From assembly GCF_037975245.1 (NCBI RefSeq), contig NC_092577.1:22098398-22162397 (forward strand): a stretch of DNA of 64,000 bases, read 5' to 3'. Shown here one piece after another: positions 1-33,764 of this stretch. The DNA comes from Apostichopus japonicus. Its lineage: Eukaryota; Echinodermata; Holothuroidea; Aspidochirotida; Stichopodidae. Under the pieces are notes generated by a model. It was not told the origin of the DNA. It saw only the letters and a list, made by a program, of their open reading frames with translations, and searched no databases. The stretch's first letter is position 1; each line of letters begins with the position of its first letter. Made by a program: the position numbers and the translations under genes.

Positions 1-240
1 GACTCTCAGGTCAACACTTCTGTGCGGCTCTTACTGAACAACGTCCCTTCGGGTGATTTTTGAAAAAAAAAGGGACATCAAACCCTGGGAACATCGGACC
101 CTGGGAACATTGGACCCTGGGAACAAAGAACCTTGGGAACAATGGACCCTGGGAACATCGAACCCTGGGGCCTGGGAACATTGGACCCTGGGAACATCGA
201 GCCATGGGAACATTGGACCCTGGGAACATTGACATAGCCC
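1..240 (-). mobile_element. Terminal end of a Mutator-like element (copy B), with 16-bp tandem repeats
   Basis: This is the inverted counterpart of the left end of the large MULE at 17934. Both share the outer tip (read inward, GGGCTATGTCAATGTTCCC), a run of CCCTGGGAACATYGRA-type 16-bp units (85-233 here), an A-rich tract and about 50 bp ending near GTTGAC. The outer boundary falls exactly at 240. The next nine bases, CCTGTAAAT (241-249), would be one copy of a 9-bp target duplication whose partner lies before the window. The body of the element is therefore off the left edge. It is inserted in the 3' part of a TNP2 transposase coding sequence. Confidence 0.75.
85..233. repeat. 16-bp minisatellite inside the MULE end
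   Basis: About nine imperfect tandem copies of a 16-bp unit (consensus CCCTGGGAACATCGGA) are visible, some spaced irregularly. The same unit forms the arrays at 17947-17993 and 28627-28937. Open reading frames through it (FPGxxVPRVxCSQG-like peptides) are artefacts of the period. Confidence 0.9.
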
Positions 241-3332: not shown

Positions 3333-6300
3333 ATGGCCCATACATTTTCAGTTGCCACTTTGAACGTGAATGGCATGAGGGATCATCGCAAGCGCAGTCG
3401 CATTTTCCAATATTGTATTTCAATGGAGGTCGACTGCGTTTGCCTGCAAGAAACACATATTTTGGAAGAAGATGTCCCTCTATGGGCTTATGAGTGGGGT
3501 GGTGGGCTGCATGCTTCGTTTGGTTCGTCTTCATCCTGTGGCACTGTCATCCTTCTGTCACCTCGTCAGGCGGGTTGTGCCACTAGGGTGGAGACGGATC
3601 ACGAGGGCCGATTGGTTTGCATTCTTTTCAAGTATCCACAGGGTAACATCTCCCTCTGCAATGTGTATGCTCCCAATCGGCCTTCTGCTAGACGAGAATT
3701 TTTTAACACGCTGCCTTCCTTTGTTCCTGGTAGTGCACCATGTGTCATGGTCGGAGACTTTAACTGTGTCCCAGACTCGGGTCTTGACAGACTCGGGGCT
3801 TCTGTGTCTGCTAGTCCTGACGCTGGGATCACAGAATTGGACAGATTCACTTCGGCACACCTTTTAGCCGATGTCTGGAGGCATATGCACCCGTGTAGTA
3901 CTGTGTATACGTGGGTGAGGCCTAACGGAGAAGATGCCTCCAGGATAGATCGAGTGTATGCGCCCGTAAGTTTTACATTTTCGGGTTGCGAGACGCTCAG
4001 CTGTCCGCTCTCTGACCATGACACTGTGGTAGCACGTTTTGTTTTGCCTTCCATTTTCCCCATCGGGCGGGGCCTATGGAAGCTTAACTGTCGGATTCTT
4101 GGCGAGGCAGAGTTCCGCCAGGGTTTCGAGACCAGGTACAAAGGATGGCAAACATTGAAGCCGGCCTTTGCTTCTACATCCCAATGGTGGGATGATGTCA
4201 AGTTGCGCATCAAACGCTACGCAATTCAGTATTGCGTGACCCGCGCACGGCGTCGAAGAGAAAAAATTCTCGAAGCTGTGCGCGGAGGTGAAGTTTGGCG
4301 ACCCTTCGGCTGTCATCGCTTTGCAGACTTATCTCGATGAAAAGTACCACGGTGCCCACGTCAGGGCCCGTGTCGAAGCGGTGGAAGCCGAGGAGCGCCC
4401 TTCACTGAGGTTTTACCAGTCCGTTAGCTCATCGGCAGGTGACAGACGCGTCCCGTCTGTGCGCGCTACTGATGGGACCGTGGTTAGTGACCCTCACGGC
4501 ATTGTCCGCGTATATAAAGAGTATTATTCGAGTTTGTTTACGCGTGGCAATGTCGACTTGTCGGCACAGGCTGATTTATTGAGGGGAATCTCAAAAACCG
4601 TTCCCCACGATGTCAATGATATTTTGGGGGGCGGAATAACCACTGTTGAGCTTTGGAAGGCGCTTTCGAAGATGAAGAATGGCAAGTCCCCGGGTTCGGA
4701 CGGGCTTCCGAGGGAGTTCTACCGAACCTTCTGGGCAATAATAGGACCCGACCTCAGAGCCGTCTTCGAGGACGCCTTCCAAAACGGACTGTTAAACCAA
4801 AGTCAACGTATGGGCATGATTACTTTGCTGCCCAAGTCTGGGGACCCCTTGGATCCCCGTAACAAGCGTCCGATCACCTTGTTAAATGTGGACTACAAGT
4901 TGCTGGCTAAGGCTTTGTGCAACCGCCTTGCACTGGCTATGCCGCATCTTTTTGGTGATCTCCAGACTTGTGCAGTGAAGGGTCATTGCATCCAGCAGAA
5001 CTTGTGGTTGATGCGCGACTTCACCGACTTTGTTATTGAGCGTGATCTGCCATGTGCATTGGTGTCTCTGGACCAGCAGAAGGCCTTTGACATGGTGGAT
5101 CGCGGTTTTTTAATGAATGTATTGGAGACGTTTCAGTTGCACCCAAATTTTCCTAAATGGATTTCTGTTTTGTATGAAGAAAGTTTCAGTTCTGTTACCG
5201 TAAATGGGTTTTGTTCGGAGGTTAACGTAGAGAGGGGGGTGCACCAGGGGTGCCCTCTGTCTCCATTACTTTATGTTTTGTTTAGCGAGTCCCTCTCTCG
5301 TCTTTTGGAAAGGGACTCCAGACTTGTTCCATTCGTTGTGCCAGGGGGTGCCAAAGTGAAATGCGCTCAATATGCAGATGACGTGACATGTGTTGTTTCG
5401 AGTCTGGGCTCCTTTCGCGCACTCTCGCAGGATTTATCTATTTTTGAGAGAGCTACCGGGGCGATGTTGAATCCAGAAAAGACAAAGGGCCTTCGTCTTG
5501 GTAGCTGGAGATACAGAGACTTACCATTCGGTGCGTCGTGGTCGGATCAGAATATCAAAATTAATGGTATATGGTTCGGCTACGATGCACCTGGTGATGT
5601 CACCTGGAGCGAGAGGGCTGAGGTATTTGAGAGCAGGCTCGAAACCTTTGGCACCCGCTGGCTTTCGATCCTAGGGAAAGTCACCGTAGTTAATCGTTTT
5701 GTTTCGCCCATCTTGTGGTACCCGGGCGCGGTGTATCCAATTCCGCGTCGCGTCCTAGTGCGGTTGGAGAGAGCGATATTTTCATTTATTTGGTCGGGTG
5801 GTACAGAGCTTGTCAAAAGGGCGGTAATGTACCAAAAACTGGAGAAGGGTGGGTTAGGGGTGGTTCATCTGGGAAGTAAGTTAACTTGTTTGTTATTTAA
5901 GCAGTTGTTTGTAGCGGTAACTGACCCAGGGTTGCCTTGTTCATATTTTGTACGTTTTTGGGGCGGTTTGCACCTGCGTCGATGGGTCCCGGCGCTGTTT
6001 AGCAACAGAGAACCGCATAGTAGTACTCCAAACAGGGTGGTGCGTGTCATTTGCTCCGCTCTGATTGAGTTGCCCCCTGTTGACCTATCACAGCCGGCCC
6101 TCGTTCATAGTTCGTTGCGGGATAGGGCCTTGAATGCAATTTTTGTACAGGGACGTCATCCTGTCGAAGTATGGCGTTCGGTGCATTCAAGGCTGAATGG
6201 TTGCAGGCTCCGTGACCTTGCATGGAGAATTGCACACGGTGCCTTGGTGACCAATCTGAAAAGGTATCACTGGCGATTGGGTGATGGACTGTGCCCGAGG

Positions 6301-6723
6301 ACCGGCTGTGACAGCTTAGAGAGTACTGCCCATGTTTTTTGGCATTGCCCCTTTGTTTTGAACTTGTGGGAGTGGTTTCAGTCCTGGACCGACCGTTTAA
6401 CGGGAGACCGTTCCTGGTCGGTAGGACAGGGTTTTGTTTTGTATGGATTAGATCCCCCAGTTTGTTCCGTTGCTGTGTTGCAGCGTATTATTTATGTTTG
6501 TTCTGTTGTAAAAAAGCTTATTTGGAGGAATAGATGTGATGTTGTTTTTAGGGGGAAATTTGCCACTTGGCAGGCAGTCCTGGAGGCGGTGAAGTCTGAC
6601 ATTCGCCTTCAGGTTGAAGGCGACTTTCGCCGTTTATCTAGGGCTGCCTTTTTTGGACGGTGGTGTGCTGGGGAAGGGTGTTTTGTTTCGCTGCGTGCTG
6701 GTCGTCCTTTTGTAGTTTTTTAA
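3333..6723 (+). pseudogene. LINE ORF2, AP endonuclease-reverse transcriptase, one frameshift
   Basis: The first frame (ATG 3333 to stop 4340) carries the endonuclease: VATLNVNG, CLQETHI, NVYAPNR, VMVGDFNCVPDSGLDR, RIDRVYAP and SDHDTVV, the metal-binding and catalytic motifs of AP-type LINE nucleases. The second frame (to 6723) carries the reverse transcriptase: NGKSPGSDGLPREFYRTFW, PITLLNVDYKLLAKAL, SLDQQKAFDMVD, GVHQGCPLSPLLY and catalytic YADD (about 5374). It ends with a CPRTGCDSLESTAHVFWHC zinc-finger-like motif. The frames switch at a run of six A (4261-4266) where copy 2 has five. Apart from this indel the gene looks intact, so the copy is young. Confidence 0.9.
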
Positions 6724-6885
6724 TATTTCAGTGGGGGGTTGGGCGTTTTGTCTCTGCAGGTCGGTGAGCGTATGTACTTTTTTTGGCTCGCTTGACCTGA
6801 GGTTCGTTTGTAAGAATGGGATGGTTTGGTAGTGCCGTTTGGCCGTGACGTTTTTGTATCCCGTATGACGGGTCACGTAAAAAGC

Positions 6886-6901
6886 ACTCATAGGACCAAG
6901 G
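6886..6901. repeat. 16-bp target-site duplication of LINE copy 1, right
   Basis: Perfect second copy of ACTCATAGGACCAAGG (first at 1884-1899). Confidence 0.9.
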
Positions 6902-12429: not shown

Positions 12430-13392
12430 CTGCTCGCCCTGGATGATAACATAAACCACAGCCCATGTATCCATTAAACTGCAGGCGGTTTTGCAAAGCC
12501 GCCCTGGCAGGGGCATCAGCACAACAACAAATTCCGTAGAATTTGCTTCTAATTATTTCACCCTAATTTTCCCACTGAACACCATCATCAGCCAAAATTC
12601 TTGCTTCTCTTACAAACTTTTCTAAAAACATATTCATACGAGGCCCTTTTTGGCCGAACCATACTGCAGCAAGCAGTCAATTTTTCATTCTTAAACTTGG
12701 TGGAAGCTCATTAATCATGATATAGATAGGCCAAAGGGAGTAACTTGCAGACTTGAACACTGGCATTCCATGTGTATTAAAAGTGTATGTGAAGTTATTT
12801 GGAAAATTATGTACTTCTTCAAGATTTTTGTAAATTTCACCATCAAAAATATCTTCCAAATTTCCGTCCTGTTTCTTATGTCTGTTGTACCTATAAGCCA
12901 GATTCACTGTTATGTCCTCCCTTTCAAGTAAAGTCTTTATCTGATGCTTCAGACTAGATGTAATGAAAAAGTTACTATTTTGCATGTTTCCAACATTGCA
13001 ATCTCTCTGACAATGTGGGCAAGAGACAACACCTACATTTATGCCTTGCCAGGTTCTAACAAAGCTCAAACAATAACTGCAATAAAAATGAAATGATAAA
13101 TTCAAAAAATTGCTTTTAAATAACTCCTCAAATATATATTTTGATGCTGGTATAACAAGTCTTCCTAATATGCTACTAATAATATGCAGAAGATCCACCA
13201 TGGCAGCTGTAGACAGACAATGCCGCATCACAAAAGTCATGACCATCAGGATTACCTCAGCCTTTGTTACTTGTGGTCCCTGGAAAAGTGGTTCATTCAG
13301 TGTCTCATCTGCCTGGAATGCTGCTTCATCATCTGCTGGGACATCACTATCTGTTTCCAGAACAATTCCCTTCAGAAGCAGATGAAGAACCC
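12430..13392 (-). pseudogene. TNP2 (En/Spm) transposase, N-terminal region exon
   Basis: The minus-strand reading frame starts after a TTTTTCAG acceptor. It reads NEPLFQGPQVTKAEVILMVM, CPHCQRDCNVGN, then FNTHGMPVFKSASYSLWPIY, MINELPPSLRMKN and WFGQKGPRMNMFLEKFVREA. The last blocks are classic TNP2 motifs (FNTDGxPVFKSSxxSxWPIxxxINELPxxxR). The zinc-ribbon-like Cys pairs (YCSYC, CPHC) are also typical. A TAG stop at 12563-12565 interrupts the frame before DAPARAALQNRLQFNGYMGC, where the next 14 codons run into the CACTG element. This is a decayed transposase, unless the stop is a base error. Confidence 0.85.
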
Positions 13393-13751
13393 TGAAAAAT
13401 ATACAAGTATGGCAATTGATATAAGGCCAAGCGAATGTGGCACAGAGTACAACACTGCAAAAATAATTAAAATTAGCCGCTTCATTTTTTTTTAAAATCA
13501 CCACGGTAGCAATCTTACTTTCATTATCCTGCATGAGGAACAATTTTTTTCTGCACCCAAACCCAATGATCCTTGACATGGGACACTTAGTTGTAATGCC
13601 TACAGGATATATGTATGCCTATTTACAGGTAATTACGAATACAAGTCACTTATAATGAAGTTCACCGCAAATTAGTTCGCTGCAGGTAGAGTTCCCTCAC
13701 AGGTAAAGATCATCACAGGCAATGTTTGCTGCACCTACACGAAAGTAGGGT

Positions 13752-17351: not shown

Positions 17352-17679
17352 GTAGTATTGCTTTATTAATTTGTAAGTTGTCACTTATTTAACAAGCATT
17401 TTGTAATTGTACCTAACAAGGTTACATGTACATAGCCTATGTATACCATATCTGTGCAAATCAGTTTGAGTTGGCTTTCGTGGAGTGCAGACGTGTTTCG
17501 CTCTCGCTCTCCATCTGATACAGCTACTTTCTTACCTTACCTTACTGTACTGTGCTATACTTCCCGCCAGGCGGGTGTGTGCGTTTGTCGTATATAGTTA
17601 TCGTATATCGTTTTAAGTTTAAACCTGTCTTTATAGTTTGTCTTTGTTACTCCTCTGTGGCCTAGCCACCTTCGGTATC

Positions 17680-17933
17680 ATGGCATCGCGCCGTGATTCT
17701 AAAATTGTTAAGTTGACCTTCACCGGTGAACAAGCGGTTCCACCGGTGCAAGTTTTTAGTATTTTAAAGAGTAAGGGTGTTGTTGTGCCTGGAGAGGTTG
17801 ATGCTTTACAAGCTCTCCAGGGTCGTAATACGTATGATCTACGTTTTACCAGTGACGTGACCCGGCAGAAGGGTGTCACGTTGCTGAGTGGGGTTGAAGG
17901 TTTCACAGTTACTCCATACGAACGTTCCGTATG
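17680..17933 (+). pseudogene. LINE copy 2 ORF1, 5' part
   Basis: MASRRDSKIVKLTFTGEQAV through VTPYERSVW, almost identical to copy 1, is interrupted by the MULE after codon 84. The rest of ORF1 is at 28945-29860. Confidence 0.9.
17925..17933. repeat. 9-bp target-site duplication of the MULE, left
   Basis: TTCCGTATG is perfectly repeated at 28945-28953. The uninterrupted LINE copy 1 has the sequence once (about 2369-2377), proving the duplication. Confidence 0.95.
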
Positions 17934-17946
17934 GGGCTATGTCAAT

Positions 17947-17993
17947 GTTCCCAGGGTCCATTGTTCCCAGGGTTCGATGTTCCCAGGGTTTGA
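17947..17993. repeat. Left terminal 16-bp array of the MULE
   Basis: Three to four units of TTCCCAGGGTYSATTG type, the reverse complement of the right array. Confidence 0.9.
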
Positions 17994-18063
17994 TGTCCCT
18001 TTTTTTCTTCAAAAATCACCCGAAGGGACGTTGTTCAGTAAGAGCCGCACAGAAGTGTTGACA

Positions 18064-20520
18064 GCCACTCAGTGGCCTCACAATTGGTGCTTTCAGGGGA
18101 GGGGTCTAGTAACTCGCCGTGCGGCCCCTGAGGCTGAACAACCGGGTGCTCGGACCAGGCGCATACCGAGAGATTTGTCTGGGGGCTCGTAGACGCAAAA
18201 TGGTGCTTGTAGAAAAACAGCAGTAAAATTTCCACTGAACACTCATAATCTTGTTTGTCACTTGGTCATGTTGTTTTGCCCCTCCCTGTAGCTATCTTAC
18301 TGGCCCGGACTGCATGTTTGTTCGCTCATCCCATCCCAGCAACACACAATCTTTTTGAAAATCCACACTGTACCCTAAGTTTCTGAAAACGAAAATTCGG
18401 GAATGGATCGACCGAATTCGGGCAAAGAATAGGTGAAATTTGTACAGAGATACAGCAAAATTGAAAAGTTTGCCCGAATTGTCGACTGAGTGCCCGAATT
18501 TCAAATGTGCAAAAGTTTCGCGCTACTCGCTCAAAGTGATTTACGGTTTGCTTTATACACATGAACTGCTATAAAATGCTAGTAGCTTTCGGGAGAAACT
18601 TTCTGCCTCCTTGAACTGAAAGGGTCCCGTACGCCTATGTTCATCTCCGCCCGAATTTACCAAGTCTTTGCCCGAATGTTCGTCGTTTTCAATCCGAATT
18701 CTCGATCTCAACATTTTTTGGAGGCAGCCCCCCCCCTTCCCCCGCCTCGTACGCCTGTGACGGAGATTACAAGGACTAATATACTACTTATGGGCAAAAC
18801 CACCATTGTCAACGTAGGCCTACAGTAGTTGGCAAGGAATTCATATAAGCCTCTGATGCTTGCTTACACCATACCGCTCAATTCAATTTGAGTAGCCTAT
18901 ATATACCGTACTCTTGCCGCCACTTGACGTCATTTTCCATCTCTTTTCTTTGTCCTTTTGTCTTTTCCTCTATATTCTCGTAATGGCTACCTTCCATTTG
19001 CGCCCTTTGTATAGTGAGGGGCGATCGCCCCTCCCATCCACCCTTTTGTTACGCCACCGACACCACTATCAGCTCCGATAGTCAGATTAGACCATGCAGA
19101 AACGCGTAGAATTCACCCTCAGCGTCGTTAGTAGGCCCTTAACCGTAGTGCAATGTTTCAATATCGATCCTCTATTCTCACGTAAAACAACAAATGCTAT
19201 ATACTACTACAGTGAAAAATGTGGAGGGGCGGAAGTATTATTCCGCCCCCCCCCCCGCTTCGCAAGTCAGAAAACCCCTTTTTCATCTCCCAGAGAAAAA
19301 AAAAATCTCATTTTGAGCACCAAATTGCATCTAAGGCCAGGTGAAAATACAAAATTAAGTTTACAAAATGAGTGGGTGTTGAAGTGTGCTATATTGCACC
19401 AAATTGCATCTGAGGCCACCTGGAAATGCCAAAAAAAATCCCAATTCTTGGGGGGAAAATCGTCCACAAAAAGAGAAATTCCCCCTCCTCCTACCCCATC
19501 AAAACATTTTTGGCCGAATCGCTACCTCAGTGAAACGGAACATTTATTACTCTCCTGGATTTCAGGACTTTTACTGCATTTCGTCGAATGCTAAAGGGGT
19601 AATTTTTTTTACATTCCAAATTAACTAAACTGACATTCCAGTTACCATGATTTGAATGTACTGTTGCATTCCAATTGTCCAGCAACACTAAAAGTTAAGC
19701 TTTCCGTCATATTGATGATGTATCCATTGTCTCGTGTAAGTTCCCGTAACTTTTAGACCTTTGACATGGGAAATACTCGATTGCGCAATGCACCGCTCGG
19801 ACACCTACTGTACTAATTGACTTGCACGCCCTATGTTGTTATAGCGGTCGATTAGGTCCGTATGTTTTGCGTTACTGTTCGATTCGTAATACAAGGGAGT
19901 ATCGTAACGCCGACCGAATTCTATTCAGTCAAGTCGGAACACAGAGTCACGAAAAATCAGCCAAAGAGTTCAAGTAATGTCTAAATACTTTGTTAAAATG
20001 AAAACACTTTATCTTGTTACATACGGTTAATGAAGTACATCAATTAATCCTCCAATCAATGATGATTCGCTTTAAGATGAGTTAAATGGTAGCAATAAAT
20101 CTTTGGGCATAATACATGGCTTAACTCATTTACAACTCTATTGGAAGTAAAGCAGTACCAAAAGAAATACAAGTGTAGACCAAACCTCGCAGCCTCTGAC
20201 AATAACTCGCAATATGCGAGCGAACCCTAAACGTCTTAATTCCTACGAGCTGATCTGTTTCCCGCTACTTGTGATCTGTGCTGTATCTCGCAAATCAGTG
20301 CGAGCTGGGCTGTTTCTCGCAAATAGTGCAAGCTGTACTGAAACCTAGGTATAATTCGGGTCTTAAATACACATATTCACAAAATAGGGAGATGGTCGAG
20401 CTTCAGCCTTAGGTTACCTTTCAGTACTTTTACGTCAATCTTTCTCAATATACCGAATTAAATTATGAGCTAGAATAATGCTCCAGCCTTGTAAATTTTA
20501 GGGTAACACCACAAGTAATT
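18064..20520. other. MULE interior, repeat fragments only
   Basis: No gene is supported. At 18615-18760 lies a fragment with GCCTCGTACGCCTGTGACGG, related to the foldback repeat at 45664. At 19300-19440 the motif GCACCAAATTGCATCTRAGG appears twice about 80 bp apart, part of a dispersed repeat. C-runs occur at 18730 and 19245. Confidence 0.5.
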
Positions 20521-20529
20521 CTGGGTGTA

Positions 20530-21820
20530 TCTAAAACGAAGACCTCTAAAACGAAAATCGAAGACAGAAGACTGGTGAAATCTCTAAAACGAAGACATCT
20601 AAAACGAAGACCGAAGATAGAAGACTGGAAAAATCGAAAACAAATAAAGAAGTCTTCGTTTTTCGATCTTCGTTTTCGAGAATCGCAATATAGGCAAATC
20701 TCGAAAAGGAAGACCAAATAACGAAGACCTGCAATAATAATCATTTAAAACAGATACAATCGTCATGAAACTCTCCGAGTAGATCATACAATGTTTAATG
20801 GCCGTGTCAGCCCTGGGGACGGGGGAGTGGGGATTAATAAACCATCGGTTACGTGGTAAGGAGCAAATTCATGTAAGCTTATGGGCATCCGTACAACTGT
20901 GATCTCTTTCCGCTTTTTCAAAATTAGCCATTGAGTTAATTTGTCAGGTTTCCTGATCTCTTTTTCTTCATATTGTCTGTCTCATCTTCATTGAGAAATG
21001 AACATTTAAGAAGTATTTCACCAATAGTTGCAGATACAAAAGGAATTAAGCTTGAAATATCGAAGTCTTCGTTTTTCGATCTTCGTTTTCGAGATTTGAA
21101 GTATAGGCAAATCTGGAAAAGGAAGACCGAATAACGAACACCTGCAATAATAATCATTTAAAACACATACAATGGTCATGAAACTCTCCGAGTAGATCAT
21201 ACAAGGTTTTATAAATTGAAAAGATTCCAAATTTGAGTTAAAATGTTGAATTGGAAGCCACCCGACATGTAAGTTGTAATACATAAGCCCTTGCGGGCTT
21301 CTCCCACATTTGTGGTCGCTTAAGCGTCGTTAAAATAACTGCTGATTATTATTATTATTAATGGCCGTGTCAGCCCTGGGGACAGGGGTTGGGGATTAAT
21401 AAACCATTAGTTTGTGGTAAGGAGCATTGCATTAAAGCTTATGAGCATCCGTACAACTGTAATCTATTACGGCTTTTTCAAAATTAAGGCCACCATTGAC
21501 TTTATTTGTCAGGTTTCCTGATCTTTTTTTTTCATATTGTCTGTCTCATCTTCTTTGGAAAATCAACGTCTAAGAAGCATTCTACCAATCGTTGCAGATA
21601 CGAGTAGAATTTAGCTTGAAATATCGAAGTCTTCGTTATTCGGTCTTCCTTTTCGAGATTTGCCTATACTGCGAATCTCGAAAACGAAGACTTCTATATT
21701 TGTTTTCGATTTTTCCAGTCTTCTATCTTCGGTCTTCGTTTTAGATGTCTTCGTTTTAGAGATTTCACCAGTCTTCTGTCTTCGATCTTCGTTTTAGAGG
21801 TCTTCGTTTTAGACACTAAT
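20530..21820. mobile_element. Foldback element with about 190-bp inverted ends
   Basis: The left arm, 20530-20720 (TCTAAAACGAAGACCTCTAA...), is the near-perfect reverse complement of 21635-21820. Each arm contains sub-repeats of CTAAAACGAAGAC. Between them an internal block is duplicated: 20655-20800 resembles 21060-21210, and 20800-21070 resembles 21360-21640. It has no ORF. A target duplication is not evident. It is probably a nonautonomous DNA element with a rearranged core. Confidence 0.8.
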
Positions 21821-22344
21821 TACGGCATCTTTAGTATTATATTTGGTCTAGATAGACAGATAAACAAATATACTAACGTTGATTGGTTCACTTCACTGAC
21901 ACGGTCGATCTAACATTGACGGATACTAACGGCCTCTTACGAACAATAATCTAACCCTTTTATACCAAGTAGCTTGAATAGCTGAACTCGGTGACCCTCT
22001 TTTATGTTTTTGATGTATGCCGAAGCGCGCGCACGCAGGAAGCGGCTTCCTTTTTGTTTTGGAAAACTGTCTACACTGCTGGGAAAACACGGTGAGCTTC
22101 CTTAGATCTAAAGAGAAAAGGGTTTTAAAGGTCTGGGGCCCGAGACGGGGAAATCGAAATAAGAATAGTAAACAGCCCGAGCTCAATACAGAACGAAACA
22201 AATTAACAGAAAGAAATCTGCTAGACTTATACGTCAAATTTCTGTAACAGTATAGCCAAGACTGGAGAGTTCCCGAGCTCTGTTTGTATAATCTGCACTT
22301 TGTTATTTCCAATTATTCTTGTTTGAGTTCTGTATGTCCTTAAC

Positions 22345-22977
22345 ATGGATGAAGCAAAGATAGTGCAGGGTGAACGCGGTGGTCGTATTCTAGCCTCAGG
22401 GGGCTTCCGATACCAACTTCATCACCGGAAGCAGCTCGAAATGACTTGGCGATGTTGGCGACGCCCGTGCCATTCGAAGCTTTTCACCAATACATTTGAC
22501 AAAGCTGCCGAAAACCCAGATATTCAAATTCGAGTAAGAGAAGAACACAATCACCCACCAGACGACGACGTCATAGACAGGAGAAGTTTCGTCGACCGTT
22601 GTAGGGCCGAACTTGATAGGAACCCAACTATTTCGATCAAGAGAGTATAAGAAAGCGAGATTGCCAATGAGCAACGGCGAGTCGCTCGTCAAGGAGGCGG
22701 TGATCGCCCGCAAGTGCCTCAATTCCAAAGCGTACGCTCTCAGCTTCATAGATCACGTAGTAGTATGATTCCTGAAATACCAGATTCAATTGATGATGTC
22801 GATATCAACGGTCAATGGGCTGAAACTTGGAATAACGAACAGTTCCTCGTGCACCAAGACAATGATTGGGGACTAGCTATATTTGCTACAGAAGATAATC
22901 TAAGGGTGCTGCGACGATGTCGGCATTTTTTCATGGACGCAACGTTTCGGACAAGTTTTCAACATCATCGGTATATA
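22345..22977 (+). pseudogene. MULE transposase, FLYWCH finger and start of catalytic core
   Basis: From ATG 22345 the frame gives a FLYWCH-type zinc finger: GGFRYQLHHRKQLEMTWRCW, then RRPCHSKLFT, then EEHNHPPDD (Trp-Arg-Cys, Cys, His-x-His). A stop at 22648-22650 interrupts it, yet the same frame continues to RRCRHFFMDATFRTSF, the first catalytic Asp motif (MDATF) of MULE transposases. About 22950 the frame shifts. FLYWCH fused to a MULE core is a common animal arrangement; the finger presumably binds the terminal repeats. The copy is not functional as written. Confidence 0.85.
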
Positions 22978-23514
22978 TAAAGGCCATACTTTATGCCTTG
23001 CTACAGCATTGATGACCAATCGTACCGTGGCCGATTACAGAAGAGTCCTCTTCGTCATTCGTAGAGAAGTGAGGCGGGTTTCTCGGCATAGATGGCGCCC
23101 TACTAACATGACCTGTGACTTCGAGCAAGCCATCATATCAGCAGTCGGAACCGAATTTCCAAACATAGAAATTGGCGGGTGTTATTTTCATTTTACGAAT
23201 AACATGTGGAAGCATGTTCAGGATCTTGGTCTGGCCAGAGCCTATCGGTAAGATGAGCAATTGAAGAAGGTGATAAGGAAATTGATGGCGCTGGGATATT
23301 TGCCTAGGGCTCTGGTGAGAATGAATTTCGACTTGCTAAGAAGAAGAAACTCGACCGCTCGCTTAATGCATCTGTATCCGGCCCTTGCCGACTTCTTCGA
23401 CTATGTGTCAAACAATTATATCAACGGGCAATATCCTATCACCCTTTGGAACGTATACGATCGTGACATGGAAACACGTACAAACAACCGAGTTGAAAGT
23501 GAGTTTCATTTGTA
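22950..23514 (+). pseudogene. MULE transposase, catalytic core continued
   Basis: In the +1 frame: FNIIGIYKGHTLCLATALMT, NRTVADYRRVLFVIRREV, then MTCDFEQAIISAVGTEFP with the second catalytic Asp (CDFE), then GCYFHFTNNMWKHVQDLGLA, the C-x-x-H motif of the MULE domain. A TAA follows AYR at 23249-23251. The frame then continues as LKKVIRKLMALGYLP to TRTNNRVES. It ends at AAA/GTGAGT, a good donor, and the last exon is at 27021. At least one frameshift and one stop are present. Confidence 0.85.
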
Positions 23515-26500
23515 ATCATACTTAGACGAAGAATAGTTCCCGATGCCAGTGTCCCCGTTTTGTGCCCCACAGCTTTTAATGAGGGAAACTCTGCACCCCC
23601 CCAATGGGGGGTGCAGAGTTTAAACGGTTAACCGTTTAACCGGCCGCAAATGCACTATCCGTTTAGAAAATCACAAAACGTATAAACGGAAATATTTTCG
23701 ACAAATTTCCAATATATTTTAAACATGAAATTATTTAAAAATATGTAAAAAACTGAGTAATGTACTGCAAACTATCAATATAAAACAGAAAACGATGTTT
23801 TAGGCATGAATAATGTGCTCAATATAATTATAGTACTAGGCCAATAGTCATGAACTCATGATAGTGTCGTCATTTCGTTTTCTCAGTTTACATTTGCGAC
23901 ATATCACCCGTGTACATCGATCAATGGCATGGTGAAATCCCGTGTGAAAGTATGTTGACCCCAAAAGACGCAAATGGTCGTTCTATAAAGTACCGTAATA
24001 ACATTAACAACACAAGGCCAGTTTGCTCTCTCAGGTCCGCACGTGTACAGCCATTTGTTCACACTCATGGTAATATACTGTGCATGTATTGCGGGCGATA
24101 TTAGCTTTTTACCGTCACGATAAATAGTTCAAAAATTATCGATAACATAATTTTTCCCCTAACATAATTAGCGTAAATGTCGAGCTTTGAGTGGACGGAG
24201 AAAGAGAGATATATGGAGGGGACATTCAAAGAGAATATCTGAAAAACCTTACGATATTTTCACAAATATTGATGCTTAGAAAAGTGCTTCCTCACAATCA
24301 ACGAGCCGCCCCATAATTCGCTCCGCTTACGTAAAACTTTGGTCACAGAACATAAGTACGTCATTGACATTCGAACTTGCCCAAGTTCATCGCACCATGG
24401 GAACGACACAACACATTGAACATGATGTTACATTTTCTCGCCATCTGGACGCAGGGTGTAAATATTGGTGTAATATGCAAATTATGAATGGTACTTTGCT
24501 GAGCGGTTAAAACTGAACCTATATTGCGACACAAATTTTGGGAAGCTGTTGTAGAAATAACTTTTGTATCAAATGTAAAGTACTGTGTGGCACGTGACGT
24601 CGCCGAAATCGGACGCTGCTCAAACCAGTTTCAACTTGATTTTTACAATCCATCGCACAACACGTGCGTGCGTAATTGTTTTCTTAACATGACTTTTAAT
24701 GAGTAAGCAGGAAAGGCGGGTAAAATTTGTTAAGTTAGGCGAGTTTTTGTTTCAAATCTTGTGATAGAGAAATATATTGTTTTTTCAAAAGTTACGATGT
24801 TGCCGAAGGCCGAGTTATACCAATTCAGTGATCTGAACTTCTGAAGACCACGAATACTGATCATGTGTGTTATTCTTTTCAGCAATCATTACACGAAATG
24901 TTCGCTATATTATTGTGCCTAATTAGTAATTAAGATACGTGGATTGTCGTCTTGTTGCCTGAATTGCTACCTTAAAAACCTTAATTATTGTACTCATAAT
25001 GTCCTATTTTCATTAAAAGTCGAGTGACGGTGCGTCGAAAAAGCCGCGATCGGAAAACGGCGTTCAAACGTTTAACCGGACCCTTACCCCCATGCACCTC
25101 TCACTGGATAGGCTATATGGACATATTGATCGAGGCGAGTTTTAAACACATCGTTTGAAATAATCAGTTGGGGCTGGCCTGCAAGTTTGTGATAGACTAG
25201 AAATTGGACAAAATTTCGTATTTCTTTATTTAAGCAAGCTCGCCAAGCTATCGAATTTCTGATTAGCCGATCGACCGATAGTTGGGCTCTCAATATACGA
25301 CCTATTTATCACTCAGCTTTTCCAGATGCCCATTCCCCTACCCCAGCCTTCTACGAATTAACAGGGACAATGTTGTTTTGGCTAAACACTTAGGAGCAAC
25401 TAGATTAACAGGCAGTACATAGTCCAAAAAAAAAAAATCGAAAACCGCACAGACTGCAGACCCATTGTTCGGTTAGGGATCTGGCCATAGGCGCGGAGGC
25501 GTCGGAACCGCTACGGCAGGTACGACAGCTGACGTACCACTTTTCAGCAAATATGGAAAAATACAAATATATCTTGGGGGTATAATTCTTAGATCCCCAT
25601 TTCGACTGTGTCACTTCACATTCGGCCGTACCACGCGCCTGAATAGCATATTCGTACGAGGAGGATGTGTCGAAATGCTTCTATCGTTGGAAGCTGGAGT
25701 GTCGGGAAGGGGCTAAGACAAAAAGTGATGGCTACTTCTGGGGGGAAAAGGAGGAGGGGTGACGCCGGAGTAGCCCGACCCGCGCCTGGAAGTGTAATAT
25801 TCCACTCTTCCAGGGCCCTTCGGAGAGGTCAAAGATTTATATACTGCGTTTGTCTAGTTCATATGAAGCCGGAAGATATGTGGCGGGCGAAGCGAACAGA
25901 AAATTTCAGCTGCAAAATGGGAAATTGCGCTTATAAGGGTGGAAATGGATAAACCGTATGAGTCACAGACCCACGTTGGGGTGGGTATGGTTAAGCTAAC
26001 ATGAGTTCGCGATGCACCCAGCCCCCCCCCCCCCTGGTTTGTGCGCAGCGCACACGAATTTTTCGTGAAAAATAGCGTACCGGATTGCTGAAAAAGACAC
26101 TTGACAAGCTCTACAAGTGTTTTCTAAACAACAGGAGCAACATAGCCACAGGGACGCGACCTTTCGTGCTCCAGCTGCGACCAAATGAAATAACTGCAAA
26201 TGAAAACATCCAAAATAGTTTTGACGCTTTTTGCTTCTACTAAGGAAGGAGAGGCCAACTTGCTGTCCCTCGGCAGGAGGGCGTGGGGGGGGGGTTAGCT
26301 GCCCGCTGTCCTCGTGGGTCCGGCACCCTTGTTGTGAACAACTATACAACGGATAATTTTGAGAGATAATCGAGACGTCGAGCAGCTGGTGAGAAAGTAG
26401 CATCCGGACAAAAGGGGTGCGGCAGTGGTAGGCCACACGCCCACCAGAGGTTGTCTAAGCAAGACGCCTCGGTACATGAAGAGCTGTATTGGTATTGGAG

Positions 26501-27020
26501 AGCGTGGTGACCTAGTACTCTTGGGCAAGGTATTCATCTCAGCGAATTGCTTCTCTCCACCCATATGCTAATTGGGAACCTGTAAGAAACCTTAGTATAC
26601 CGTGCGCCTTTGGGCTGCTATATAGCCTACTCTCAGGTTTTGTTGGAGTGCGTGCCTGGTTCCAATGATCAGGGGTAATGACTGTGTGAAGTGTTCGATG
26701 GTGAATTGCGGGGTAAAGCGCTATATAAGAATAATTATTCATCATTAACATTATTATTATACTCATTAACATCCATTGCTCATATATAGGAGTTAACAAA
26801 GTAGTATGATCAGAATATTACACGAACTTTGTTAAAACCTATATTGAACTTACTCTGCATACATCGTGGGAACGTGAAAAGGCGAATAGCCGAGGAGTAG
26901 CTTATTCCACCTCATGTCTCGAGTCTTGAAAAATCCACTGCGTAGTTGGCAAACATGCTCATATCAAAGTCATGCGTATGACCCTATGATAGTTTCCCTC
27001 GTACTATTTCTTGATTACAG
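23515..27020 (+). other. Intron of the MULE transposase gene with nested repeats
   Basis: GTGAGT...GATTACAG boundaries. It contains a short perfect hairpin (CTCTGCACCCCCC at 23590, closing at 23619), a CGGTTAACCGTTTAACCGG motif at 23625 that recurs weakly at 25065, and a SINE near 26.5 kb. I see no gene; the ORFs here are short. Confidence 0.55.
26455..26760 (+). mobile_element. tRNA-type SINE, diverged
   Basis: The internal stretch CTTGGGCAAGGTATTCATCT with CTTCTCTCCACCC, and the 3' end GGTAAAGCGCTATATAAGAA followed by an ATT-rich tail, match the body and tail pattern of marine-animal tRNA-derived SINEs as I know them. The 5' tRNA-like part is too diverged to identify A and B boxes. Confidence 0.6.
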
Positions 27021-27283
27021 GTTATCACCGTCAGTTCAACGATGGAATGATAGTGAGGCACCCATCCCTTTGGCCCTTCATCAGACAGTTGAAGGATGTA
27101 CAGAGCCGCGTTGAAGCAAAAATTGACGCTGCAGATCGTGGTGAAGAGCCACCACGACGTAAGAGGAAGTGGCGCATTCTCGAACGTCGCCTTCGCCGAC
27201 TAAAGGCACAGTATCAAAACGGCAACAGGCCACTGCAGGATTACTGGCGAGCAGTCACCTACTGTGTTGGCGATTTCATTTGA
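27021..27283 (+). pseudogene. MULE transposase, C-terminal exon
   Basis: After TTGATTACAG, joined to AAA of the previous exon, the frame reads VESYHRQFNDGM, then HPSLWPFIRQLKDVQSRVEA, then EEPPRRKRKWRILERRLRRL and a stop after CVGDFI. The N-x-VE-x-x-H...F and HPxxWxFIxxLK patterns are the terminal part of the MULE fold, where VE contributes the catalytic glutamate. This exon itself is open. A degraded second copy follows at 27735. Confidence 0.85.
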
Positions 27284-28380
27284 AATTTGGCAGGCAGCGA
27301 CACATTACGGTACATTCGACTGGTGTAAATGTGTTTACTAAGTCTTCTTTTCGACTGATTAAACGAGATCCCAACCGAACAAGAACTATAGATCTCACTG
27401 TTATGTAGAATTCGAAAAACTCAGCCCAAACAGGACGCGTATATACGACTCTTGTGACTTATTTTATAGTTATTATATGGCTAGGTGGACGATGTACAGC
27501 AACTCACTCTGTTGGTTATTCCGTTTTATCGAGGCTGTTGTTTTCTTTTTTCAGTTAGCAGCTCTGCATGATTTCCGTTAACGTTTAATTATAATGATAA
27601 GCAATCACATGTATTGTTATTTCATTGCGTTCGTAAACGTGATCCAAGTCAAAACGCCCTACGTGATAGAAAAGCATCATATATTAATAGTGTCTATGTG
27701 TGTAAAAATGTGCAGTAACTCACTCAACCCTTTGGACCTTCATAAGACCGTTGAACAGCCTATTGAAAGATGTCCAGAGCGTCGATCGGGGTGTAGCGCC
27801 ACCACGCCGAAAGAGGAAGTGGCTCATCCTCGAACGACGCCTTAATTCCAGGCATTAAGCGCAGTGTCAAAACGGTAACGGGCCACTACATGTGATTGCT
27901 GGCGAGTAGATTCCTACTGTGTTGACGTTTTTTAGTCGGCAAGCAGTGACATATTACCAGTACATTCGGCTGGTGTGATTTTGTTTCTAACTGTCTCTCC
28001 GACAGATTAAACGTGATCCTAACTGCCTAGGAACGAAAAACAATTACGAGTTCACTGAGCACTATAGGGCATAGAATTCAAAATAGTTATCCCAAACAGG
28101 ACGCATGATGTCATTAATTTGATAGTTATTAAAAAAAATGCTACGTTGACAATGTAGAGCAACTCACTCTGTTCATTATTTTCGTGTTTACTATGCGTTT
28201 TGTGTTGTATGCAGTTACTGCTTTAATTTCCGTTAAGTGGGTCTAATTCTAATGATAAACAATCACGATCATTGCCATTTCGTTGCATTCGAAAAACGTG
28301 ATCCGAGTCAAATTGTCCTATGTGGTAAGCCTAATTTGATAATAGTGTTATGTTTGTAAAAATGTGCAGTAACCTGCTGC
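27060..28380. repeat. Tandem duplication of about 650 bp, diverged
   Basis: 27060-27725 and 27726-28380 are similar in order: the MULE C-terminal exon, GACATATTACxxGTACATTC, GATTAAACGxGATCC, TGATAAxCAATCAC and AAAAATGTGCAGTAAC. The second copy has lost its reading frame. It predates the insertion of most small indels seen. Confidence 0.75.
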
Positions 28381-28626
28381 GTTCACCCTGTTTTTGAAAT
28401 GTACATGCGAAATACTACTTTGTCTACCAGTATACTCTCTTCACTTAAGCCTACTTAAGTTGAGTGTCACTAACTGTGTTATCCTTTAGATAATTCAAAC
28501 GTTACAAATATGACAAATAGTATTATAGCAGTATATAGGAGCATCCTGAGAGTCCGGAGTTCCACGAGGCCGAGAATTAAGAGGGTCCGCTTTGGTGCTG
28601 CCCGACCGTGCTCGGGGACAGGCTCA

Positions 28627-28937
28627 GACCCTGGGAACATCGAACCATGGGAATATCGAACCCTGGGAACATCGGACCCTGGGAACATTGGACCCTGGGA
28701 ACATAGAACCCCGGGAACATTGAACCCTGGGAACATAGAACCCTGGGAACAGAACCCTGGGAACATCGAACCCTGGGAACATCGATATTTCTGGGAACAT
28801 CGAACCCTGGGAACAACGAACCTTGGGAACATCGAACCCTGGGAACAACGAACCTCGTATTCATCGTCAGCCATTGAAATAACACGAAAACGGGGAATAT
28901 CGAACCCTGGGAACATTGAACCCCGGGAACATCGGGT
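28627..28937. repeat. Right terminal 16-bp array of the MULE
   Basis: About 19 tandem units of CCCTGGGAACATCGAA. One spacer (about 28788-28796) and one insertion (28858-28895) interrupt the run. The orientation is opposite to the left array, so the arrays form extended inverted repeats. Confidence 0.95.
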
Positions 28938-28944
28938 AGAACCC

Positions 28945-28953
28945 TTCCGTATG
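28945..28953. repeat. 9-bp target-site duplication of the MULE, right
   Basis: TTCCGTATG, identical to 17925-17933, followed at once by the LINE sequence GGTAACTGTCATCC. Confidence 0.95.
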
Positions 28954-29860
28954 GGTAACTGTCATCCACGTAGGATTCGAGGTGCGTCAAGAACTTGTCG
29001 CAACTGTTTTAGGTCGGTTCGGGGCTGTCAAGGCTATTCAAATGTGCTCCTACGCACAGGCCCCTGGGGTGTTCAACGGGCACCGACAGGTTCGGATCGA
29101 CCTCCCTCCTTCCTTTTTATTGCCGGGCATAAAGCTCACGTGCGTTACCCCGGTCAGCCCTGTACCTGCTTCAGGTGTGGGGAGACCGGGCACGAAGCCA
29201 AGGGCTGCCCAAATAAAAAGTGTGGGCGCTGCCTTCGTCTTGGGCATGATACCTCTGCTTGCCCAAGCGAAGTCGTGTGCTCACTCTGTGGGAAGGAGGG
29301 ACATGTCTTTCGCGCTTGTCCCTCCTCTTATGTCTTTATGACAAAGAGTGGGGGTCAAGCAAAGGCGCCAAGTTCTGGCGCACCTACTGACCCGGAGGAA
29401 GCTCCACGCAAGGAGGGGGAAACGGGTGAGGATTCACTCTCCGCACCTCCTTCACCCTCCCCCGTAGTTGCAGACCCCAACCCCGTGCCCGCACCGAGAA
29501 AGTCTCCACCAGCTTCCCCCATCAACCTCGTGCCCGCACCGTCTCCACCACACAGCGAAGCGGACACGGGGTCTCCACCAGCTTCCCCCATCAACCCGTC
29601 CAGTTCCGTCCCCAGTCCGCCGCCGGTATCGCCAGATCCGGAGACTGTCTGACGACGACTCGGTCGTCCTGTCTCCGGAGGCTATGTCTGACAGCGACTC
29701 CGGAGGCTCGGTGATCGTCGAGCCGAAACGTGCCACTGGGACGAGCTGGTACGACGAGATGGGGGAACCCTCACTGAAAAGGTCGGCCTCAAGTGACGAC
29801 TCCGACGACGATACGTCGTCTAGAGCGCGCTTGAAGCTTACAGAATCGACGTCGGCGTAG
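28945..29860 (+). pseudogene. LINE copy 2 ORF1, 3' part
   Basis: It encodes VRQELVATVLGRFGAVKAIQ and VFNGHRQVRIDL; then 13 bases present in copy 1 (AAGCAGGACATTC) are missing near 29103, shifting the frame. The three CCHC knuckles follow intact: CFRCGETGHEAKGC, CGRCLRLGHDTSAC, CSLCGKEGHVFRAC. A second length change near 29645 brings a stop in the acidic tail. Confidence 0.9.
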
Positions 29861-29880
29861 TTTTGCCCCATTGCCCTCTC

Positions 29881-32800
29881 ATGGCCCATACATTTTCAGT
29901 TGCCACCTTGAACGTCAATGGCATAAAGGATCATCGCAAGCGCAGTCGCATTTTCCAATATTGTATTTCAATGGAAGTCGACTGCGTTTGCCTACAAGAA
30001 ACACATATTTTGGAAGATGTCCCTCTATGGGCCTATGAGTGGGGTGGTGGGCTGCATGCTTCGTTTGGTTCGTCTTCATCCTGTGGCACTGTCATCCTCC
30101 TGTCACCTCGTCAGGCGGGTTGTGCCACTAGGGTGGAGACGGATCACGAGGGCCGATTGGTTTGCATTCTTTTCAAGTATCCACACGGTAACATCTCCCT
30201 TTGCAATGTGTATGCTCCCAATCGGCCTTCTGCTAGACGAGATTTTTTTTAACACACTGCCTTCCTTTGTTCCTGGTAGTGCTCCATGTGTCATGGTCGG
30301 AGACTTTAACTGTGTCCCAGACTCGGGTCTTGACAGACTCGGGGCTTCTGTGTCTGCTAGTCCCGACGCTGGGATCACAGAATTGGACAGATTCACTTCC
30401 GCACACCTTTTAGCCGATGTCTGGAGGCGTATACACCCGTGTAGTACGGTGTATACGTGGGTGAGGCCTAACGGAGAAGATGCCTCCAGGATAGATCGAG
30501 TGTATGCGCCCGTAAGTTTTAAATTTTCGGGTTGCGAGACGCTCAGCTGTCCGCTCTCTGACCATGACACTGTGGTAGCACATTTTGTTTTGCCTTCCAT
30601 TTTCCCGATCGGGCGGGGCCTATGGAAGCTTAACTGTCGGATTCTTGGCGAGGCAGAATTCCGCCAAGGTTTCGAGACCAGGTACAAAGGATGGCAAACA
30701 TTGAAGCCGGCCTTTGCTTCTACATCCCAGTGGTGGGATAATATCAAGTTGCGCATCAAACGCTACGCAATTCAGTATTGCGTGACCCGCGCACGGCGTC
30801 GAAGAGAAAAATTCTCGAAGCTGTGCGCGGAGCTGAAGTTTGGCGACCCTTCGGCAGTCATCGCTTTGCAGACGTATCTCGATGAAAAGTACCACGGTGC
30901 CCGCGTCAGGGCCCGTGTCGAAGCGGTGGAAGCCGAGGCGCGCCCTTCACTGAGGTTTTACCAGTCCGTTATGTCATCGGCGGGTGACAGACGCGTCCCG
31001 TCTGTGCGCGCTACCGATGGGACCGTGGTCAGTGACCCTCACGGCATTGTCCGCGTATATAAAGAGTATTATTCGAGTTTGTTTACGCGTGGCAATGTCG
31101 ACTTGTCGGCACAGTCTGATTTATTGAGGGGAATCTCAAAAACCGTTCCCCACGATGTCAATGATATTTTGGGGGGCAGAATAACCACTGTTGAGCTTTG
31201 GAAGGCGCTTTCGAAGATGAAGAATGGCAAGTCCCCGGGTTCGGACGGGCTTCCGAGGGAGTTCTACCGAACCTTCTGGGCAATAATAGGACCCGACATC
31301 AGAGCCGTCTTCGAGGACGCCTTCCAAAACGGACTGTTGAACCAAAGTCAACGTCTGGGCATGATTACTTTGCTGCCAAAGTCTGGGGACCCCTTGGATC
31401 CCCATAACAAGCGTCCGATCACCTTGTTAAATGTGGACTACAAGTTGCTGGCTAAGGCTTTGTGCAACCGCCTTGCACTGGCTATGCCGCATCTTGTTGG
31501 TGATCTCCAGACTTGTGCAGTGAAGGGTCATTGCATCCAGCAGAACTTGTGGTTGATGCGCGACTTGACCGACTTTGTTATTGAGCGTGATCTGCCATGT
31601 GCATTGGTGTCTCTGGACCAGCAGAAGGCCTTTGACATGGTGGATCGCGGTTTTTTAATGAATGTATTGGAGACGTTTCAGTTGCACCCAAATTTTCGTA
31701 AATGGATTTCTGTTTTGTATGAACAAAGTTTCAGTTCTGTTATCGTAAATGGGTTTTCTTCGGATGTTTTTAACGTAGAGAGGGGGGTGCGCCAGGGGTG
31801 CCCTCTGTCTCCATTACTTTATGTTTTGTTTAGCGAGTCCCTCTCTCGTCTTTTGGAAAGGGACTCCAAACTTGTTCCATTCGTTGTGCCAGGGGGTGCC
31901 AAAGTGAAATGCGCTCAATATGCAGATGACGTGACATGTATTGTTTCGAGTCTCGGCTCCTTTCGCGCACTCTCGCAGGATCTATCTATTTTTGAGAGAG
32001 CTACCGGGGCGAAGTTTAATCCAGAAAAGACAAAGGGCCTTCGTCTTGGTAGCTGGAGATACAGAGACTTACCATTCGGTGCGTCGTGGTCGGATCAGAA
32101 TATCAAAATTAATGGTATATGGTTCGGCTACGATGCACCTTGTGATGTCACCTGGAACAAGAGGGCTGAGGTATTTCAGAGCAGACTCGAAACCTTTGGC
32201 ACCCGCTGGCTTTCGATCTTGGGGAAAGTCACTGTTATTAATCGTTTCGTTTCGCCCATCTTGTGGTACCCGGGCGCGGTGTACCCTATTCCGCGTCGAG
32301 TCCTGGTACGGTTGGAGAGGGCGATATTTTCATTCATATGGTCTGGGGGTACAGAGCTTGGCAAGAGGGCGGTATTGTACCAAAAACTGGAGAAGGGGGG
32401 ACCTAGGGGTGGTTAATCTGGGAAGTAAATTGACCTTTTTGTTATTTAAGCAGTTGTTTGTAGCGGTAACTGACCCAGGGCTGCCTTGTTCATATTTTGT
32501 ACGTTTTTGGGGCGGTTTGCACCTGCGTCGATGGGTCCCGGCGCTGTTTAGCAACAGAGAACCGCATAGTAGTACTCCAAACAGGGTGGTGCGTGTCATC
32601 TGCTCCGCTCTGATTGAGTTGCCCCCTGTTGACCTGTCACAGCCGGCCCTCGTTCACAGTTCGTTGAGGGATAAGGCCTTGAATGCAACTTTTGTCCAGG
32701 GACGTCATTCTGCCGAAGTATGGCGTTCGGTGCATTCAAAGCTGAATGGTTACAGGCTCCGTGATCTTGCATGGAGAGTTGCACTCGGTGCCTTGGTGAC

Positions 32801-33272
32801 CAACCTAAAAAGATATCATTGGCGATTGGGTGATGGACTGTGCCCTAGGACCGGCTGTGACAGCTTAGAGAGTACTGCTCATGTTTTTTGGCATTGTTAC
32901 TTTGTAGTAAACTTATGGGAGTGGTTCCAGACCTGGACCGACCGTGTTAAGGGAGACCGTTCATGGTCGGTAGGGCAGGGCTTTATTTTATATGGGGTAG
33001 ACCCTCCAGTTTGTTCGGTAGCTGTGTTGCACCGCATCATTTTTGTTTGCTCTATTGTAAAAAAACATGTTTGGCGGAATAGGTGTAATTTGGTTTTTAG
33101 GGGGAAATTTGCCAGTTGGCAGGCAGTTCTGGAGGCGGTGAAGTCCGACATTCGCCTTCAGATTGAAGGCGATTTTCGGCGTTTATCTGGGGCTGCCTTT
33201 TTTGGACGCTGGTGTGCTGGAGAGGGGTTTTTCGTTTCGCTGCGTGCGGGTCGTCCTTCTGTACGTTTTTGA
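29881..33272 (+). pseudogene. LINE copy 2 ORF2, endonuclease-RT, two frameshifts
   Basis: ATG 29881 (MAHTFSVATLNVNGIKDH). The first frameshift lies at a T-run (30242-30250, nine A/T versus eight in copy 1), the second near 32391-32403 before GVVNLGSKLTFLLFKQLF. Between them a long open stretch carries the endonuclease end, the RT core with YADD (about 31919) and AFDMVD. The last frame holds the cysteine motif CPRTGCDSLESTAHVFWHC. Confidence 0.9.
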
Positions 33273-33440
33273 ATGTTTCAGTGGGGGGGGGGGGGGTTGG
33301 GCGTTTTGTCTCTGCAGGTCGGCGGGCGTAGGTTTTTTTGGCTCGCTAGACCTTAGTTTCGTTTGTCAGAATGGGATGGTTCGGTAGTGCCGTTTGGCCG
33401 TGACGTTTTGTATCCCGCATGGCGGGTCACGTAAAAAGCA

Positions 33441-33764
33441 ATAACAGGTTTCCAATTTAAGATGTCACCATCAAAAGAGGCTCCGAGATATTTCAAAATT
33501 TACGCAATTGCCTTCATCGTTGTTTCAAACATGGAGTGTCCTATTGGCATAATGATATACTTTGCGAAAGTTATTAGTGAAGTATACAGCATACACGTTT
33601 ATGCTACAAATGTGAGGATGCCCTACACTGAACATTATGAACATTAAACTATCGATCTAATTTCAAGTAAGGCTTCATTTGTACATAACACCATGATCAG
33701 CACCCATAAATCTATTCAAATATCAATTAAATATAAATATTTTTTTTATCATTTTCCTTATCAG
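33441..33764 (+). other. BEN gene intron, 3' part
   Basis: Host sequence after the LINE up to the acceptor CCTTATCAG. No gene is seen. Confidence 0.6.

What the first reader, a model, noticed from the sequence alone, without database searches (positions are those of the whole stretch)
17925..28953. An 11-kb MULE whose ends are minisatellites, inserted in a LINE
Two pieces of one LINE (ending 17933, resuming 28945) abut an 11011-bp block flanked by a perfect 9-bp duplication TTCCGTATG, present once in the intact LINE copy 1. Both ends consist of a 16-bp tandem repeat in opposite orientation (3-4 versus about 19 units). The interior encodes a FLYWCH-MULE transposase. Seen in sequence: duplication, arrays, transposase motifs. 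Established: Mutator-type elements make 9-bp duplications. Inference: the arrays act as transposase-binding terminal repeats whose number varies between copies. I know of no such design described for this family.
Basis: partly seen in the sequence, partly recalled or inferred. Interest (0 to 1): 0.88.

Follow-up and report, generated by a model that had tools for sequence, protein, structure and literature searches.

The report
Sea-cucumber Mutator transposon with repeat-array ends
A broken copy of a jumping gene, probably in a sea-cucumber genome, has ends built from a short repeated motif, a design already described for related jumping genes in mosquitoes and root-knot nematodes, so it is a new member of a known kind.

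Summary
An 11,011-bp element (17934-28944) interrupts a LINE; the joined flanks match the uninterrupted copy at 118 of 120 bases. The direct repeat is at most 11 bp (TTCCGTATGGG); 9 bp is the best reading. The ends are inverted 16-bp arrays of 3.2 and 18.9 units. The window's first 240 bases hold the left end of a second copy with 8.9 units, so unit number varies at the same end. Inside is a FLYWCH-MULE transposase broken by two stops and a frameshift; a 95%-identical uninterrupted exon exists in public data. The host looks like a sea cucumber. The novelty claim fails. Tm1 of root-knot nematodes has asymmetric outer motifs, variable numbers of 13-15 bp repeats, mostly 9-bp duplications and FLYWCH-MULE (PMC3169594); 10 of 12 long-TIR Aedes MULE families carry 9-15 bp subterminal repeats (PMC5225508). 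That FLYWCH binds the units is inference. All 13 own-genome requests did not complete, so family-wide statistics are missing.

The parts
17925..17933 (.). left target-site duplication TTCCGTATG
   Evidence: exact match to 28945-28953 and to LINE copy 1 at 2370-2378
17934..28944 (+). whole transposon, 11,011 bp, termini GGG...CCC
   Evidence: interrupts LINE; flanks joined match LINE copy 1 at 118/120
17934..17944 (+). left outer motif GGGCTATGTCA, outside the array and different from the right end's
   Evidence: same motif at the end of the second copy, window 230-240 minus strand
17945..17996 (+). left 16-bp array, 3.2 units (ATGTTCCCAGGGTTCG)
   Evidence: TRF
22345..22647 (+). transposase exon 1, FLYWCH zinc-finger part; followed by an in-frame stop
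   Evidence: PF04500 E=4.3e-7, residues 7-70
22651..22977 (+). transposase exon 1, middle part with first catalytic Asp; no Pfam match of its own; frame lost near its end
   Evidence: alignment to P0001 and relatives
22979..23248 (+). transposase exon 1, MULE catalytic part with second Asp and C/H motif; followed by an in-frame stop
   Evidence: PF10551 E=4.6e-10
23252..23498 (+). end of transposase exon 1 with catalytic Glu (TNNRVES)
   Evidence: Glu invariant in the 12-row alignment; no Pfam match of its own
23499..27020 (+). predicted intron, 3,522 bp, GT...AG
   Evidence: splicing joins VES to YHRQFN; of 34 relatives that reach the Glu, 12 run on into the exon-2 block and 22 diverge after it (10 and 24 by script, two moved by eye)
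27021..27283 (+). transposase exon 2 to stop; no Pfam match
   Evidence: alignment to full-length relatives
27784..28373 (+). diverged duplicate of the last-exon region 27134-27719, 71.6% identical
   Evidence: BLASTN
28628..28934 (-). right 16-bp array, 18.9 units, interrupted near 28851-28893
   Evidence: TRF score 327; opposite orientation to left
28933..28944 (-). right outer motif (inward: GGGTTCTACCCG), different from the left one
   Evidence: sequence
28945..28953 (.). right target-site duplication TTCCGTATG
1..240 (-). left end of a second copy, running off the window start (end may be 241 or 242, two further C's follow); array 82-231 with 8.9 units
   Evidence: 97.4% over 117 bp and 94.6% over 56 bp to the first copy's left end; TRF

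Best explanation
A defective copy of a cut-and-paste Mutator-superfamily element of the Phantom/Muta type (FLYWCH zinc finger plus MULE DDE transposase) with Foldback-type ends. Shown: insertion into a LINE with a 9-bp duplication (11 bp at most); asymmetric outer motifs followed by inverted 16-bp arrays; different unit numbers at the two ends and between two copies; a broken transposase gene, with an intron predicted from splice signals and relatives. Inferred: a working copy's transposase binds the repeated unit through its FLYWCH finger, several molecules loading each end and adding specificity, while cleavage happens at the GGG/CCC tips; the unit number drifts by slippage or unequal exchange because only a minimum number is needed. 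The confidence given is for what it is and how it moves; the binding-array step alone I put at about 0.65.
For: Insertion and duplication; arrays; second copy with 8.9 instead of 3.2 units, sharing outer motif, last unit and inner flank; FLYWCH and MULE; catalytic D, D, E invariant in 12 aligned sequences and, in P0001, His 24 residues after the second Asp, the same distance as D283 to H307 of Muta1 (PMC5225508). Precedent: Tm1, Aedes Muta families, THAP binding to sites in Galileo's tandem repeats.
Against: Binding to the unit is untested here and, according to PMC3688188, was untested for Foldback and Phantom elements when that paper was written. Variation rests on two copies, one cut off by the window. 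The left end has only about three units, so a long array is not obviously required. Other Muta1 distances differ from P0001's: 69 versus 67 (D to D) and 136 versus 126 (D to E). A FLYWCH C-C-HxH pattern was found in 29 of 38 relatives, not all. Whole-genome confirmation failed: 13 genome-search requests unanswered.
Confidence: 0.85

Rival explanations
1. Same transposon, but the arrays are by-products: a subterminal segment amplified by slippage or unequal exchange and tolerated, while the transposase needs only the outer tip and perhaps the first unit.
For: Unit number varies widely (3.2, 8.9, 18.9); units are degenerate and one array is interrupted.
Against: Both ends keep the same unit in inverted orientation; ten of twelve long-TIR Aedes families carry subterminal tandem repeats of 9-15 bp (PMC5225508), which is easier to explain with selection. 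How often such arrays arose independently I did not test.
Confidence: 0.25
2. Same transposon, but the arrays matter for host silencing or hairpin formation (inverted arrays giving double-stranded RNA or cruciforms) and not for transposase binding.
For: Inverted arrays can pair; PMC6446971 (passages) notes that long MULE TIRs are associated with siRNAs.
Against: That would be a cost to the element and gives no reason for arrays to recur; nothing here tests it.
Confidence: 0.08
3. Two unrelated events: a minisatellite-flanked segment moved by recombination, with the 9-bp repeat a coincidence.
For: None found beyond the asymmetry of the two ends.
Against: Perfect duplication exactly at both junctions and present once at the same place in the uninterrupted LINE; MULE transposase inside; a second left end ends at the same motif beside other DNA (CTGTAAATG).
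Confidence: 0.01

Closest known systems
Tm1 (Tm1-A) of Meloidogyne, a Mutator/Foldback element assigned by its authors to the Phantom subclass (PMC3169594; parts of the text read)
   Same: Asymmetric 7-bp outer motifs, then variable numbers of 13-15 bp tandem repeats in inverted orientation so that the two ends differ in length, 8-10 bp (mostly 9-bp) duplications in 45 of 53 complete elements, FLYWCH plus MULE, introns.
   Different: Unit and motif sequences and host. Tm1-A is 2.6 kb with 7 predicted exons; ours is 11 kb with a predicted 3.5-kb intron and inserts. Tm1-A's FLYWCH lacks the last His; ours keeps C-C-HxH. Tm1 has a purine-rich motif inside the array; ours has a T-rich tract, at the left ends only.
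Muta1 and Muta5 of Aedes aegypti (PMC5225508; passages)
   Same: FLYWCH-MULE; 8-9 bp duplications; short terminal motif then subterminal tandem repeats (Muta1 12 bp plus 3-4 bp spacer, so 15-16 bp period; Muta5 15 bp); variable repeat copies in Muta1 derivatives; Muta1 predicted with two exons.
   Different: Muta1 is 3.2 kb with 145-bp TIRs and moves in yeast; ours has unequal ends and is broken.
Galileo (P superfamily) of Drosophila (PMC3688188; passages)
   Same: Foldback-like ends with internal tandem repeats; the transposase's zinc-finger domain binds sites in those repeats.
   Different: THAP, not FLYWCH; P-type transposase. An analogue, not a relative.
Foldback elements of Drosophila (FB4) and sea urchin (TU)
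   Same: Long inverted ends; PMC8277862 gives FB4 9-10 bp duplications and about 700-bp TIRs and counts it as a likely MULE (passages); PMC4079207 cites a sea-urchin foldback element (passages), so another echinoderm. That their ends consist of short tandem units (about 15 bp and 8-bp duplications for TU) is recalled only.
   Different: PMC8277862 calls FB4 nonautonomous, moved by an unknown transposase; for TU I recall no transposase. The TU and Phantom papers are not held, so details are unchecked.

Membership tests
Mutator-like elements (MULE superfamily) | MULE-type DDE transposase | tested here: met
   PF10551 E=4.6e-10; D, D, E and C/H motif invariant in 12 rows
Mutator-like elements (MULE superfamily) | 8-11 bp target-site duplication | tested here: met
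   9 bp best reading, 11 bp maximum, with empty-site control; one copy only
Phantom subclass | N-terminal FLYWCH finger followed by MULE domain | tested here: met
   PF04500 then PF10551 in order; both domains precomputed in 28 of the 38 relatives listed together
Phantom subclass | Transposase falls in the Phantom/Muta clade of a MULE tree | not testable with these tools
   No insect or nematode transposase was named among the proteins listed (8,000 candidates scored each), so no reference rows for a tree
Foldback-type ends | Terminal inverted repeats composed of tandem units whose number varies | tested here: met
   Arrays of 3.2, 8.9 and 18.9 units; two copies
Foldback-type ends | Family-wide variation across many genome copies | tested here: inconclusive
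   Two copies only; own-genome search unanswered 13 times
Tm1 family proper | Tm1 motif sequences A1 CGGTTAA, A2 CCTACCC, C CGATTCAGTATCCGC | tested here: not met
   Our outer motifs and 16-bp unit differ by eye, so not a Tm1 family member though built alike

The most novel reading that the evidence does not exclude
FLYWCH-MULEs in distant animals share a subterminal repeat period near 15-16 bp (16 here, 15-16 in Muta1 with its spacer, 15 in Muta5, 13-15 in Tm1) although the unit here differs from Tm1's. The constant could be the spacing at which transposase subunits pack along DNA, about one and a half helical turns, with the unit sequence co-evolving with the finger. The other Aedes families' units are reported only as 9-15 bp, so the regularity may not hold for all.
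Probability: 0.3. Interest if true: 0.5.

Novelty: new member of a known kind. Interest (0 to 1): 0.3.

Why it matters
It puts a FLYWCH-MULE element with repeat-array ends in an apparent echinoderm, beside the mosquito and nematode ones whose papers I read in part. No sea-cucumber or other echinoderm element of this design appeared in the listings of paper searches (one search listed 15 of 291 papers); the held library omits most subscription papers, and Repbase was not searched. Array length differing between two copies gives natural material for testing how many units are needed. It does not change the picture of how these transposons are built.

Tried and rejected
Pattern and protein scans of viral contigs: nothing. 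Rfam and tRNA scans of the window: nothing. Other domains in the element: I scanned only the five transposase pieces (two of the five matched); the other open frames of the element (listed) were not searched. Profile search for named insect or nematode relatives to place the element on a tree: none among the 37 listed. Papers for Phantom (Genetics 2010) and TU elements (MCB 1985) are not held. Considered and rejected: that the duplication is exactly 9 bp without ambiguity (the shared run is 11 bp); that the arrays are free minisatellites (the three 16-bp arrays in the window are at element ends); that the right array is two arrays (TRF joins it as one, with an internal interruption).
Full report
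Observation. The element occupies 17934-28944 (11,011 bp). TTCCGTATG stands at 17925-17933 and 28945-28953 and in an uninterrupted LINE copy at 2370-2378; its only other occurrence in the window is on the minus strand at 49446-49454. The flanks joined without one duplication match LINE copy 1 at 118 of 120 bases. BLASTN aligns the LINE halves at 97.4% over 469 columns and 94.6% over 4,539 columns. Because the element starts with G's, the direct repeat can be read as up to 11 bp (TTCCGTATGGG); 9 bp leaves GGG and CCC termini and is the best choice.

Ends. TRF gives a 16-bp period at both ends: 3.2 units at 17945-17996 and 18.9 units at 28628-28934. They are inverted with respect to each other. 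Outside the arrays the ends differ: GGGCTATGTCA on the left, GGGTTCTACCCG on the right read inward. A third array at 82-231 (8.9 units) belongs to the left end of a second copy in the other orientation: outer 56 bp at 94.6%, and element positions 13-129, the three units and 68 bp inside them, at 97.4%. It shares the outer motif, the last unit and the flank inside the array but has about six more units. So unit number varies at one and the same end; this rests on two copies, and the second copy's other end and duplication lie outside the window. Outside the three arrays, one search found only two single unit-like matches (4684 and 31229, one in each LINE copy).

Transposase. FLYWCH (PF04500, 4.3e-7) lies at 22345-22647 and MULE (PF10551, 4.6e-10) at 22979-23248; three further pieces of the gene gave no Pfam match. 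The reading frame is broken by two in-frame stops and a frameshift. A predicted GT-AG intron of 3,522 bp follows the catalytic Glu codon, and splicing joins VES to YHRQFN. Of 38 relatives taken reach the Glu. By the script, 10 run on into the exon-2 block and 24 do not. By eye I moved P0002 and P0154, which go on with FHR and have 85 further residues, to the first group, giving 12 and 22. That many reading frames stop matching at this point fits a shared intron. A FLYWCH C-C-HxH pattern was found in 29 of the 38. Catalytic D, D and E are invariant in the 12-row alignment. P0001, whose source names no organism, is 95% identical over 82% of the query and uninterrupted, so less damaged copies exist.

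Host. The LINE's reverse transcriptase is 88% identical over 63% of its length to a protein of Apostichopus japonicus, and the next named hits are from Holothuria and Apostichopus (120 of 1,222 hits listed), so the window is most likely from a sea cucumber; Apostichopus is Echinodermata, Holothuroidea. The window's assembly is not named, so this is inference.

Comparison with what is known. For PMC3169594 (Tm1) I read the abstract, introduction, first results sections, the first of two parts of the discussion, and found passages. Tm1 has asymmetric 7-bp outer motifs, a variable number of 13-15 bp tandem repeats that makes the two ends of one element differ, 8-10 bp (mostly 9-bp) duplications in 45 of 53 complete elements, and a transposase with FLYWCH and MULE domains. 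For PMC5225508 (Muta1) I read passages only: all 14 Aedes families have 8-9 bp duplications, 12 of 14 have TIRs over 100 bp, 10 of those 12 have subterminal tandem repeats of 9-15 bp, 13 families have FLYWCH, Muta1 derivatives have variable repeat copies, and Muta1 transposes in yeast while Muta5 did not. For PMC3688188 (Galileo) passages only: the THAP domain binds sites in the tandem repeats, and the authors say that binding to the Foldback and Phantom repeats was untested. PMC6446971 (passages) lists Phantom with 8-10 bp duplications, TIRs of 18-613 bp or none, no finger or FLYWCH or SWIM, and a minisatellite after the transposase ORF in aphids. PMC13359780 (passages) says that most of its arthropod MULEs have conserved G/C in the first three terminal bases, as here. 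PMC4079207 and PMC8277862 were seen as passages.

Mechanism. Shown: insertion with duplication, array ends, variation between two copies, transposase type, and that this copy is broken. Inferred from Galileo and the Muta/Tm1 parallels: the transposase reads the unit as a multi-site binding platform. The 16-bp period is close to the 15-16 bp of Muta1 (12 bp plus 3-4 bp spacer), the 15 bp of Muta5 and the 13-15 bp of Tm1, which may reflect protein packing; this is the most novel reading I would keep, and it is untested.

Limits. All 13 genome-search requests did not complete, so copy number, boundaries and duplications across the genome are unknown. No reference Phantom protein was available for a tree. 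Whether Repbase already holds this family could not be checked.

Noticed in passing
20527-21816: A 1.3-kb block inside the element, upstream of the transposase gene, has 136-bp inverted arms, 98% complementary, that themselves carry a 53-bp tandem duplication; it looks like another inverted-repeat transposon nested in the first. No clear target-site duplication seen by eye.
   Followed up: partly
27134-28373: The last-exon region and downstream DNA are duplicated in tandem (71.6% identical over 619 columns), leaving a degraded second copy of part of the exon.
   Followed up: partly
26440-26740: Possible SINE-like stretch ending in GCGCTATATAAGAATAATTATT; recognised by eye from memory only, no tRNA or Rfam match in the window.
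   Followed up: no
58060-60342 minus strand: Long open frame (760 aa) with a weak, sub-threshold phage-integrase match (E=0.022), perhaps a Crypton-like tyrosine recombinase (recalled).
   Followed up: partly
12677-13618 minus strand: Open frame with a sub-threshold Transposase_21 (tnp2, CACTA-type) match, E=0.0034.
   Followed up: partly
46806-48107: Tandem array of a 399-bp unit, 3.3 copies, 94% matches.
   Followed up: no
1915-6894 versus 17468-33448: The two LINE copies are 94.6-99.3% alike in 300-column steps over the first 3,600 columns, 93-95% over the next 600 and 87-90% over columns 4,201-4,800, as if the 3' parts had a different history.
   Followed up: no
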